Shown here: piece by piece, positions 22,363 through 24,455 of the stretch
How positions within the stretch are numbered: position 1 is the stretch's first letter
How the letters are laid out: every line of letters starts with the position of its first letter
Source: Muribaculaceae bacterium
GTDB lineage: Bacteria; Bacteroidota; Bacteroidia; Bacteroidales; Muribaculaceae
Direction of reading: 5' to 3'
Length of the DNA stretch: 40,249 nt
NCBI GenBank assembly: GCA_029061255.1
Contig: JAIDSL010000005.1
Location: 1-40,249 of the forward strand
Position numbers and translations under genes: made by a program
Notes under the pieces: generated by a model
What the model was told of the DNA's origin: nothing
Database searches by the model: none
What the model saw: the letters and a program-made list of their open reading frames with translations, nothing else

Positions 22363-22391
22363 GGACGCACGGCTCGTGCGTCCTTTTTTTT
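22363..22391 (+). terminator. Strong rho-independent terminator after the GH3 gene
   Basis: GGACGCACG (22363-22371) and CGTGCGTCC (22375-22383) form a perfect 9-bp GC-rich stem with a 3-nt loop, followed by eight T (22384-22391). Confidence 0.95.
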
Positions 22392-22410
22392 GAAACATTT
22401 CTTGATTATG

Positions 22411-22442
22411 TCGAAGTTTTTTCCGAACTTTGCAAAAAGATA
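22411..22442 (+). promoter_or_regulatory. Promoter of the first MNT/HEPN pair
   Basis: CTTG (22411-22414), 20 bp, GAACTTTG (22435-22442): 3 of 4 and 7 of 8 matches to TTTG / TAnnTTTG. The context CCGAACTTTGCAAAAA is identical to the promoter of the 109-aa gene at 27922-27937. Confidence 0.5.
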
Positions 22443-22473
22443 CTTCAAAATAAGACATTTAAACAAGACCTCA

Positions 22474-22767
22474 ATGTGCAGCTCCAAAGAATGCATCAGG
22501 ATTATCACCGAAAATAAAGACCTCATCGAAAAGAGATATGGAGTTAAATCCATCACTCTCTTTGGATCAGTGGCACGCGGAGATAATCGTCAAGGAAGTG
22601 ATATTGACCTGTTGGTTGATATGCCTCCTCGTTTTGTCTTGCTTTATGAGTTGAAGACTTTTCTTGAAGACATCCTTAAATCCTCCGTCGACATCATACG
22701 AAAGCATTCCCACATGTCTCAGGCTTTCCTAAACCAAATTTCCCACGATGCTATCCAAATACTTTGA
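22474..22767 (+). CDS. mntA: MNT-type nucleotidyltransferase antitoxin (MntA-like)
   Basis: The 97-aa minimal nucleotidyltransferase has the GSx10DxD motif: G31-S32 in LFGSVARGDNRQGSDIDLLV, then D43 and D45. The ATG at 22474 is chosen because the promoter lies inside the longer open frame that begins at 22390. Proteins of this type AMPylate their HEPN partner and neutralise it (known for MntA/HepT). It overlaps the next gene by 20 bp, the usual arrangement of this toxin-antitoxin pair. Confidence 0.88.
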   Translation: MCSSKECIRIITENKDLIEKRYGVKSITLFGSVARGDNRQGSDIDLLVDMPPRFVLLYELKTFLEDILKSSVDIIRKHSHMSQAFLNQISHDAIQIL

Positions 22768-23146
22768 AACAGACAAGGACAGGGCACTTATCACGCTTAA
22801 ATCTATAGCTAAGACCATAGATGAACTTATCGTATGGAACAAGAATATCCATTCGGTTGAGGATTACTACTCCACACAGACAGGCATGCAACTGCTCGCC
22901 GCCAACTGCACACTTATCACAGCCATTGGTGAGGGTATCAATAGAATTAACCGAATTCTTCCGGAATACCTTTCGACAGCTTTCCCCGATATCCCATGGC
23001 GAGCAATTATCGGAATGAGAAATCATATTGCCCATGGATATTTTGAATTGGATGCCGATTTGGTATTTGATGCAGTCAAGGAGGAGATTCCCATACTGAG
23101 ACAAACCATCGAAAAAGCAATCAGCGATATCAAAGCAAACAAATAA
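22748..23146 (+). CDS. hepT: HEPN-domain RNase toxin (HepT-like, DUF86)
   Basis: The 132-aa DUF86/HepT protein has the catalytic and target motif RNHIAHGY: R91, H96 and Y98 give the Rx4HxY pattern of active HepT RNases, in which the Tyr is AMPylated by the antitoxin. PWRAIIGMRNHIAHGYF is the hallmark segment. It overlaps mntA by 20 bp on the same strand. The motif is intact, so the toxin looks functional. Confidence 0.9.
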   Translation: MLSKYFETDKDRALITLKSIAKTIDELIVWNKNIHSVEDYYSTQTGMQLLAANCTLITAIGEGINRINRILPEYLSTAFPDIPWRAIIGMRNHIAHGYFELDADLVFDAVKEEIPILRQTIEKAISDIKANK

Positions 23147-23335: not shown

Positions 23336-23472
23336 TAAAGACTATTCCGAAAGACAATCATTGACTGAATGGATAGGAGCTTGAAATTCACATTGAGTCA
23401 TACCAGACTCCTCATATAAAAACATATCTAACGAAATCATTGTTGTTCTTATACAGAAACATATAAAATAAA

Positions 23473-23503
23473 TTTGATATTTCATAAAAATTGATTAATT
23501 TTG
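23473..23503 (+). promoter_or_regulatory. Promoter of the hairpin RNA upstream of the Abi gene
   Basis: TTTG (23473-23476), 19 bp, TAATTTTG (23496-23503): full match to the Bacteroidetes -33/-7 consensus. Transcription would start near 23510, directly at the base of the hairpin. Confidence 0.75.
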
Positions 23504-23509
23504 CATCAA

Positions 23510-23560
23510 CATACTTACCCCGCTTCCCTTAAGAACAGCGCGCTCAGGGTAAGTTTTTAT
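23510..23560 (+). ncRNA. Compact hairpin RNA upstream of the Abi protein
   Basis: ACTTACCC (23513-23520) and GGGTAAGT (23547-23554) form a perfect 8-bp stem. The 26-nt interior holds a possible inner stem CGCT/AGCG (23521-23524, 23537-23540) around CTTAAG. A T-rich tract (TTTTTATTTTT) follows the stem, so the unit looks like promoter, roughly 45-nt structured RNA and intrinsic terminator, ending just before the Abi ATG at 23565. I infer a small RNA paired with the Abi protein; it could instead be a leader attenuator for that gene. Confidence 0.6.
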
Positions 23561-23564
23561 TTTT

Positions 23565-24455
23565 ATGGACTTACCTCAATACGATAAACCTCAGATCTCC
23601 ATTCCTGAGCAGATTAATTTACTAAAATTAGATGGACTTTCGTTTAAAGATGAAAGTAAAGCTAAGCATATTCTTGAAAACATCAGTCTTTTCAGGATGA
23701 AAAGTTATTTAATGCCGCTGAGAGAGATTGGACAACGTAAATTTAAGAAGCATGCTTGTTTCGAAGATGCATATGAGCTTTATAAGTTTGATTCTGAACT
23801 GCGTAAAATTATTTGTTCTGAGTTAGAGAAAATTGAGGTGTCGATTCGTACTCAACTATCTCTAATAATGGGAGATTATTCCGGAATATATTGGTTTGAA
23901 GAATCTGGGAATTTTAGAAATCCAAGTCGACATAGTGGACTTCTTTCAAGTCTAAAATCAGAACTTTGTCGGAGTGATGATGAGGCAATAATCGGGTTCC
24001 AAAGAAAATATTCTAACTTGTTCCCTCCAACATGGATAACATTTGAGATAAGTTCATTCGGTACATTATCTATGATGTATCGGTATCTAAGACCAGGACA
24101 AGCAAGAAGAAAAGTTGCACGTTTTTATGGACTCTCTGATACTGTCATGGAATCCTGGCTCCATGCAATAGTTTATGTACGTAACATTTGTGCGCATCAT
24201 AGCCGACTATGGAATCGCAAACTTAGCATTAATGCTCTTATTCCCCGTAGGCCACAACTGACATTCATTACAATTCCCAAAGATACAAAACGAGTTTATT
24301 ATGTTTTATCCATTATATTATATTTTCTCCAAACGATAAATCCTAAAAATACATTTGCTTTACGCTTCAAACAACTTCTTTCAAAATATCCCAATGTAGA
24401 CACAAGAGCTTTGGGATTTCCTGTGGATTGGGAGAAAGAAAAACTATGGAACTAA
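23565..24455 (+). CDS. Abi_2 family abortive-infection protein (AbiD/AbiF-like, HEPN)
   Basis: The 296-aa Abi_2 protein has the N-terminal block ISIPEQINLLKLDGL and helix FDSELRKIICSELEKIEVSI. It also has WITFEISSFGTLSMMYRYL and the HEPN-type RNase motif RNICAHHSRLWNR (R206, H211: Rx4H). Members of this family act as phage-abortive RNase toxins. Some AbiF-like relatives have been reported with upstream structured RNAs and linked to the ancestry of Cas13 (my recollection of the literature). Here a promoter and a compact hairpin RNA precede the gene by a few bases. There is no protein antitoxin neighbour and no clear Shine-Dalgarno sequence. The 3' end nearly meets the oppositely oriented 45-aa gene. 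Confidence 0.9.
   Translation: MDLPQYDKPQISIPEQINLLKLDGLSFKDESKAKHILENISLFRMKSYLMPLREIGQRKFKKHACFEDAYELYKFDSELRKIICSELEKIEVSIRTQLSLIMGDYSGIYWFEESGNFRNPSRHSGLLSSLKSELCRSDDEAIIGFQRKYSNLFPPTWITFEISSFGTLSMMYRYLRPGQARRKVARFYGLSDTVMESWLHAIVYVRNICAHHSRLWNRKLSINALIPRRPQLTFITIPKDTKRVYYVLSIILYFLQTINPKNTFALRFKQLLSKYPNVDTRALGFPVDWEKEKLWN

What the first reader, a model, noticed from the sequence alone, without database searches (positions are those of the whole stretch)
23473..24455. Promoter-driven hairpin RNA coupled to an Abi_2/AbiF-like HEPN protein
Seen: a full-consensus promoter (TTTG-N19-TAATTTTG), then a perfect 8-bp stem (ACTTACCC/GGGTAAGT) enclosing 26 nt, then a T-rich tract, then the ATG of an Abi_2 protein with an intact Rx4H HEPN motif, all within 95 bp. 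No protein antitoxin is nearby. Established knowledge: Abi_2 proteins are phage-abortive, HEPN motifs are often RNases, and AbiF-like relatives have been linked to adjacent ncRNAs and to Cas13 origins (from memory). Inference: the RNA is an antitoxin or guide-like partner of this protein.
Basis: partly seen in the sequence, partly recalled or inferred. Interest (0 to 1): 0.78.

Follow-up and report, generated by a model that had tools for sequence, protein, structure and literature searches.

The report
AbiF toxin with hairpin antitoxin RNA
A bacterium carries a tiny hairpin RNA in front of an RNA-cutting defence protein that the RNA probably keeps switched off, and similar hairpins without the protein occur in viruses of bacteria, perhaps as stolen off-switches.

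Summary
In detail: a promoter, a ~46-nt hairpin, a T tract and an intact HEPN gene lie at 23473-24455. The protein is AbiF-like and matches PDB chain 8VZ6 (PbAbiF) over residues 6-295 (E 3e-64). The hairpin is a conserved RNA: in 35 RNAs of the same subtype, mostly from Bacteroidota, all 385 pair cells are kept and 8 of 11 pairs show two-sided change. It has the plan of Rfam abiF RNA (RF03085) but escapes that model, as do 20 related loci: an unlisted subtype. Best reading: a type III-like toxin-antitoxin module with a trans-acting RNA antitoxin; a guide role has no support. The surprising part is the RNA without toxin: 10 of 30 subtype copies and 37 of 90 informative other copies in one bacterial family, and viral contigs and phage isolates whose stems keep pairing while Abi_2 is absent from 15 of 15 whole records searched. 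This suggests phage-borne antitoxin mimics. Expression, binding and toxicity were not tested, and the key PbAbiF paper could not be read.

The parts
23473..23503 (+). promoter: TTTG (23473-23476), 19-bp spacer, TAATTTTG (23496-23503)
   Evidence: sequence; the TTTG and TAnnTTTG boxes are kept in orthologues while DNA further upstream is not (its L029 row was cut wrongly and is disregarded)
23509..23564 (+). abiF-type hairpin RNA with T tract; the 5' end is inferred from the promoter, not mapped
   Evidence: covariation over 35 RNAs, single R1 hit in the window at 23507-23559 (E 0.065), fold
23513..23520 (+). outer stem, 5' arm ACTTACCC, pairs with 23547-23554
   Evidence: 8 of 8 pairs kept in 35 of 35 RNAs; 7 of 8 with two-sided changes
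23521..23540 (+). inner helix CGC (23521-23523) with GCG (23538-23540) and its 14-nt loop
   Evidence: 3 of 3 pairs kept in 35 of 35; one pair with two-sided change
23547..23554 (+). outer stem, 3' arm GGGTAAGT
23555..23564 (+). T tract TTTTATTTTT: likely intrinsic terminator with the outer stem, ending at the start codon
   Evidence: sequence; termination itself is inferred
23565..24455 (+). AbiF-like Abi_2 HEPN protein, 296 aa; R206/H211 motif at 24180-24200
   Evidence: PF07751, PADLOC AbiD, PDB 8vz6_A E 3.1e-64, motif invariant in 31 aligned Abi_2 proteins

Best explanation
A type III-like toxin-antitoxin module. One promoter drives a ~46-50 nt abiF-type hairpin RNA whose outer stem and T tract stop most transcripts (inferred). 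Leaky read-through gives the mRNA of AbiF, a HEPN RNase that forms a dimer (by homology to 8VZ6). The short RNA binds AbiF in trans and masks its RNase site (inferred from PbAbiF and from C. difficile AbiF/RCd22). When phage attack or stress stops or removes the labile RNA, AbiF cuts RNA and arrests the cell (inferred). Shown here: the gene, the promoter, the covarying hairpin, its linkage to the gene, an RNA that changes far less than the gene, one relative with the RNA on the opposite strand, and many copies without toxin; all fit a trans-acting RNA better than a mere leader.
For: Protein. RNA: 79 of 92 AbiF-group loci have such a hairpin within 300 nt upstream and 4 more by R1 or pattern (L080, L092, L111; L072 as L151). 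Covariation. RNA 47/48 identical where coding DNA is 612/888 (L058). Opposite-strand RNA in L239. All 22 clade genes with upstream DNA have the RNA. Toxin-less copies with pairing kept. Experimental precedent: PMC12373285 (abstract, Results parts 1-3 of 4, Discussion part 1 of 2).
Against: No transcript, binding or toxicity data here. RF03085 does not match the window RNA, and the model from other homologues finds it only at E 0.065 and does not ring in a whole-genome scan. The RNA has one motif, whereas RCd22 has two and classical ToxI-type antitoxins are repeats (recalled). Two AbiF-group loci show no RNA (L119, L126; both near contig ends), and a subgroup (L032, L040, L043, L105, L106, L120) has none upstream but a different element downstream.
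Confidence: 0.85

Rival explanations
1. The hairpin is only a cis-acting attenuator or leader of the abiF mRNA and has no trans partner.
For: It lies in the 5' leader, looks like a terminator and ends at the start codon; the C. difficile RNA also attenuates in cis (PMC12373285).
Against: The inner core is kept as sequence, which a terminator does not need; the RNA is on the opposite strand in L239; many copies have no gene; the C. difficile RNA works in trans.
Confidence: 0.08
2. The RNA guides AbiF to targets, as crRNA guides Cas13.
For: AbiD/F HEPN domains group with Cas13 HEPN domains (PMC12165695, passages).
Against: No variable spacer and no array; between core and stem only 2-7 loop nucleotides vary.
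Confidence: 0.02
3. Rival for the toxin-less bacterial copies: they are relics, left because the gene is the larger and more harmful target and the short RNA decays later.
For: 16 of 39 fetched unpaired copies still have gene remnants; several gene-less copies lack the -7 box or score at most 37 bits; the L174/L192 pair is no better conserved in the RNA than in the flank.
Against: In the orthologous pair G147/G167 the block of -7 box, RNA and T tract has one mismatch in about 75 nt while adjacent intergenic DNA diverged and flanks as a whole are 91% identical.
Confidence: 0.5
4. Rival for the viral copies: they are ordinary terminators or chance matches of the core pattern.
For: 55 of 164 loci given to one search have no full stem; Caulobacter phage RW matches but has no proper stem; many stems are followed by T runs.
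Against: 91 of 130 unique viral flanks pair over 6 or more positions against 10.6% when flanks are swapped between loci; 13 window-type RNAs chosen on the core and three inner pairs keep 97.9% of 143 cells with two-sided changes in 5 pairs; several lie beside tRNA genes.
Confidence: 0.2

Closest known systems
PbAbiF with its ncRNA AbiFr (PDB 8VZ6; Zilberzwige-Tal et al., known here only through PMC12737573 passages and PMC12373285)
   Same: Full-length homologous HEPN protein with the catalytic R and H aligned; ncRNA partner
   Different: The RNA sequence of PbAbiFr was not available for comparison; the paper is not held
Rfam RF03085 abiF RNA
   Same: Outer stem, 3-bp inner helix xGC/GCx, GCYUCYC core, 6-nt 3' strand, position before an AbiF gene
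   Different: Different stem and loop letters, longer loop, usually no unpaired nucleotide between the stems; no match to the window at E<=10 or in 20 related loci at gathering
C. difficile AbiF/RCd22 (PMC12373285, read in part)
   Same: RNA upstream of the gene from one promoter, terminator, Abi_2 toxin with the same HEPN motif
   Different: RCd22 is about 100-132 nt with two motifs and a separate terminator; here one motif serves as RNA and terminator within 92 bp
ToxIN type III systems and phage pseudo-ToxI escape (recalled; papers seen only in the listing)
   Same: RNA antitoxin against an RNase toxin; phages can escape with toxI-like RNA
   Different: Unrelated toxin fold and repeat-array RNA; the viral hairpins here are natural and spread over several phage groups

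Membership tests
Abi_2 / AbiF proteins (PF07751) | profile match above the curated cut-off | tested here: met
   166.3 bits against 25.6
Abi_2 / AbiF proteins (PF07751) | HEPN Rx4H motif | tested here: met
   R206...H211, invariant in 31 aligned proteins; aligned with R210/H215 of 8vz6_A
Abi_2 / AbiF proteins (PF07751) | RNase activity and toxicity | not testable with these tools
   needs the bench
Rfam RF03085 (abiF RNA) | score at or above the gathering cut-off | tested here: not met
   no match in the window, none at E<=10 in 401 or 66 bases around it
Rfam RF03085 (abiF RNA) | two-helix architecture upstream of an AbiF gene, with covariation | tested here: met
   only hit of the homologue model in the window (E 0.065, marginal)
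type III toxin-antitoxin | RNA gene upstream of an RNase toxin gene with a terminator between them | tested here: met
   layout by sequence; termination not tested
type III toxin-antitoxin | RNA binds the toxin protein and neutralises it | not testable with these tools
   inferred from PMC12373285
type III toxin-antitoxin | tandem repeats in the RNA (classical ToxI type; recalled) | tested here: not met
   one motif only
Cas13 / RNA-guided nuclease | variable guide segment in the RNA; two HEPN domains in one protein | tested here: not met
   no variable segment beyond a few loop nucleotides; one Abi_2 domain in 296 aa

The most novel reading that the evidence does not exclude
abiF-type hairpins are free-living antitoxin RNAs. 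Phages of hosts from three phyla carry them without any AbiF gene, often beside tRNA genes or between structural genes, as RNA mimics that switch off host AbiF; bacteria keep orphan copies that may likewise protect them from incoming AbiF modules. The window subtype, unlisted in Rfam, takes part: 16 of the 17 viral contigs found with it have no Abi_2 gene in the DNA held.
Probability: 0.6. Interest if true: 0.85.

Novelty: new variant of a known kind. Interest (0 to 1): 0.68.

Why it matters
It adds a widespread RNA subtype, missed by Rfam, to the AbiF-ncRNA systems from which Cas13 is thought to descend. If the toxin-less viral copies act as antitoxin mimics, they are a natural, protein-free phage counter-defence that laboratory phages can test at once. 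They would also point to AbiF as a real pressure on phages, which has been hard to show (PMC12373285 calls the anti-phage activity of its AbiF challenging to demonstrate in C. difficile).

Tried and rejected
Rfam at relaxed thresholds on the window: only unrelated chance matches or none. Viral scan with the single protein: nothing. R1 over the own genome: nothing at E<=1, since the subtype scores low with a model built from the other RNAs. Guide hypothesis: rejected for lack of a spacer. Plain terminator: rejected by core conservation and gene-less copies. Loss asymmetry alone (RNA without toxin common, clade toxin without RNA not seen) as proof of selection: rejected, because the gene is the larger mutational target and the pattern search finds only intact RNAs. 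L174/L192 as proof of selection: rejected.

Errors and selections to know: one row (L029) was cut at wrong coordinates. One search picked a wrong segment for L121, which was dropped. A3 (38 rows) leaves out 6 RNAs of the window clade and 4 of a third variant (L124, L088, L090, L089) that are in A1. One search set the core offset wrongly for AGC-type cores; one search recounts. The panel held stop-to-stop frames that include RNA-derived residues, so its match in L294 is spurious and L392 counts as having a gene. A10 (27 rows) was chosen for at least 6 outer pairs and a 6-nt spacer, so its pairing is biased upward; one search is the unselected control. A11 (13 of 16 toxin-less window-type viral RNAs; L296 and L303 dropped as near-duplicates, L304 cut by the contig end) was chosen on the core and three inner pairs only. 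L388, one of the contigs searched, has no proper stem.

Full report
WHAT IS THERE. The perfect stem alone is weak evidence: the window holds 93 such stems against 16-25 in 5 Markov samples, and the promoter pattern occurs once against 0.23 expected. The RNA folds better than shuffles (z -3.0), and the supposed loop holds an inner CGC/GCG helix.

THE PROTEIN IS ABIF-LIKE. It matches PF07751, PADLOC AbiD and one PDB sequence, 8vz6_A, over residues 6-295 with E 3.1e-64. The review PMC12737573 (passages) names 8VZ6 as the PbAbiF-ncRNA complex. R206, N207 and H211 are invariant in the 31 Abi_2 proteins aligned. R206 and H211 line up with R210 and H215 of 8vz6_A, whose double mutant is reported inactive (PMC12373285, Discussion part 1 of 2). 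The own genome (3.66 Mb, 86.6% complete) has 7 Abi_2 places: two near-identical copies of this gene and five of a more distant AbiD-like group.

THE HAIRPIN IS A CONSERVED RNA. Homologues were sought in 111 genomes of the genus (33 with a match at E<=1e-20) and 397 of the family (76 at E<=1e-35). Of 92 AbiF-group loci, 79 have a hairpin of this plan within 300 nt upstream. Four more have it by model or pattern, six have a different element downstream instead, one has no upstream DNA (L071), and two show none (L119, L126, near contig ends). None of the 14 AbiD-like loci has the core; one gives a loose match without it. In 38 distinct RNAs without the window's clade (and without four of a third variant), 97.1% of 380 pair cells are kept against 81.1% in shuffles and 27-46% in slid controls, with 61 two-sided changes against 19.8. 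RNAalifold, given all 48 RNAs, predicts the same ten pairs. A model of the 38 finds one place in the window, 23507-23559, but only at 14.5 bits, E 0.065. Of 20 loci given to Rfam (7 from the own genome), 8 carry RF03085. The window RNA does not, at gathering or at E<=10.

AN UNLISTED SUBTYPE. They form a graded series by protein identity: Muribaculaceae MAGs 73-74%, Xylanibacter rarus 70%, a Parabacteroides MAG 54%, a Tannerella MAG 49%, Cellulophaga 47%, Dyadobacter 47%, Mucilaginibacter 43%, Tenacibaculum 40%, and a Kapaibacterium and a Fibrimonadaceae MAG outside Bacteroidota. Thirty-five distinct RNAs of the subtype align nearly without gaps. All 385 cells pair and 8 of 11 pairs show two-sided change (37 cells against 10.2 in shuffles; 17-57% paired in slid controls). 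Examples are GCTTACCC/GGGTAAGC, GCCTCTCC/GGAGGGGC, ACCCGCCC/GGGCGGGT and an inner CGC/GCG turned CCC/GGG. None of 20 loci given to Rfam (17 of the subtype, 3 intermediate) matches RF03085. So the RNA is abiF-type by plan and position, but not a member of RF03085 as modelled. Against the 74%-identical orthologue L058 the RNA is 47/48 identical, the coding DNA 612/888, DNA further upstream 29/52. In L239 the unit lies on the opposite strand, divergent from the gene, which argues for a discrete transcript.

HOW IT MOST LIKELY WORKS. The parts match the C. difficile AbiF/RCd22 module. There a short RNA with its own terminator precedes the gene, lowers its expression in cis, neutralises the toxin in trans and binds it (PMC12373285: abstract, Results parts 1-3 of 4, Discussion part 1 of 2). 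Here one motif would do all of this within 92 bp, its outer stem doubling as terminator. Shown: gene, promoter, structure, linkage. Inferred: termination with leaky read-through, binding, neutralisation, release on infection. A guide role has no support, since the RNA has no spacer.

RNA WITHOUT TOXIN, IN BACTERIA. The own genome holds the 112-bp promoter-RNA unit a third time, alone, about 600 bp upstream of the second copy's RNA. A core pattern found 30 copies in 28 of 397 family genomes and its reverse none. By tblastn, 20 precede a full-length gene, 4 a broken one and 6 none (with the stop in L151). Conversely, 23 genes of the clade are listed, 22 have upstream DNA, and all 22 have the RNA. 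The R1 model found 95 RNAs of other types in 69 of 397 genomes: 48 beside a near-full-length match, 5 beside a partial one, 42 with none within 250 bp. Of the 42, 39 were fetched and checked with 88 AbiF proteins: 16 have remnants only, 21 no recognisable gene downstream, 2 lie at contig ends. The 3 not fetched also lie at contig ends. So 37 of 90 informative copies lack an intact gene. Five of the 21 score at most 37 bits and may be decayed or false. One orthologous orphan pair (G147/G167) has a single mismatch in about 75 nt of -7 box, RNA and T tract, while adjacent intergenic DNA diverged; another (L174/L192) is no better conserved than its flank. Selection on bacterial orphans is suggested, not shown.

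RNA WITHOUT TOXIN, IN PHAGES. Of the 17, one has AbiF downstream. Of 164 RF-type loci given to (156 contigs and 8 isolate stretches), 109 have the full hairpin and 55 do not. Of the 109, 5 have an Abi_2 gene (4 classed adjacent, 1 whose match starts before the core) and 104 none in the DNA held; the 8 isolates were counted as none there and checked. The stem is not a selection artefact: among 130 unique viral flanks 91 pair over 6 or more positions, against 10.6% when flanks are swapped between loci. Thirteen toxin-less window-type viral RNAs keep 97.9% of 143 cells, with two-sided changes in 5 pairs. Twenty-seven RF-type ones, preselected on the stem, keep all 270, with changes in 6 pairs.

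NAMED PHAGES. Proper hairpins occur in Aeromonas phages PZL-Ah8 and PT2 (T7-like by the record's taxonomy), between connector and capsid-assembly genes, with ACCCGCC/GGCGGGT against ACCCGAC/GTCGGGT; Salicola phage CGphi29; Mycobacterium phage Thibault (33 Mycobacterium phage records match, those listed only at E 2-6, and this one alone was inspected); Rhizobium phage Pasto; and cyanophages S-CREM1, S-SZBM1 and S-SRM01. In S-CREM1 and S-SZBM1 the RNA lies between tRNA genes; 9 of the 29 contigs have a tRNA gene within 400 nt. PF07751 has a match in 0 of 15 whole records (8 isolates, 7 contigs, some of them fragments), while the same family rings 7 times in the own genome. Of 10 contigs sampled with one protein each, 3 match typical phage proteins (terminase, endolysin, virion protein), 1 thymidylate synthase, 2 viral families of unknown function, 4 nothing. 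So the viral label of many contigs rests on IMG/VR; the isolates do not have this problem. A cyanobacterial plasmid AbiF (PCC 7002 pAQ3) has an abiF-like hairpin upstream by eye, so cyanobacteria do carry such modules.

PRINT. The AbiF-ncRNA pair, its antitoxin role and the Cas13 link are published (papers above; PMC12165695 passages). PMC9964418 (passages) lists the S-CREM1 abiF sRNA and three phage genomes in Rfam; the passages seen do not propose an antitoxin mimic. Searches listed no paper on toxin-less abiF RNAs as counter-defence. The library lacks most subscription papers, and the PbAbiF paper could not be read, so priority is not established.

VERDICT. The locus is a new member, with an unlisted RNA subtype, of a recently described kind. 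The toxin-less bacterial and viral copies are what would surprise a specialist, and they can be tested at once.

Noticed in passing
L003-L007 and L049-L057 (AbiD-like Abi_2 genes, own genome and genus): 13 of 14 such loci have just downstream of the gene a promoter-like box and an element AGTG...CACTnTAA followed by a hairpin; RNAalifold on 13 gives 9 pairs, 3 with two-sided changes. No Rfam match at gathering for L003-L007, and only unrelated weak ones at E<=1 in 9 loci. Perhaps a second Abi_2-linked RNA.
   Followed up: partly
L032, L040, L043, L105, L106, L120 (downstream of AbiF-group genes): A third element, AAGCCYYYCAGGCG...AGCATACT...GGGCGTTCTT, lies downstream instead of upstream; 5 distinct sequences, with stem ends that change together; no Rfam match for L032 and L043 at E<=0.5.
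   Followed up: partly
window 22390-23146: A nucleotidyltransferase (PDC-S09/MNT-like) and a HepT-like gene form a pair directly upstream, probably a separate toxin-antitoxin module.
   Followed up: no
window 23387-23458 and L002 2731-2802 (minus strand): A 72-bp stretch, probably the start of an antisense XRE-type gene by eye, is shared by the two own-genome loci in a different order, so the region was rearranged.
   Followed up: partly
G000:C209:24040-24151: Solo copy of the promoter-RNA unit, 99% identical, without a gene behind it.
   Followed up: yes
L174, L192, L194, L195: A CCCCC/GGGGG stem variant of the RNA was seen only in gene-less copies (4 loci).
   Followed up: partly
L078/L104, L087, L100, L102, L044, L082: Two RNAs in tandem, with or without a second AbiF gene behind the first.
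   Followed up: no
L311, L313: Viral contigs with 23 tRNA genes each carry two abiF hairpins in a row, like the two motifs of RCd22.
   Followed up: no
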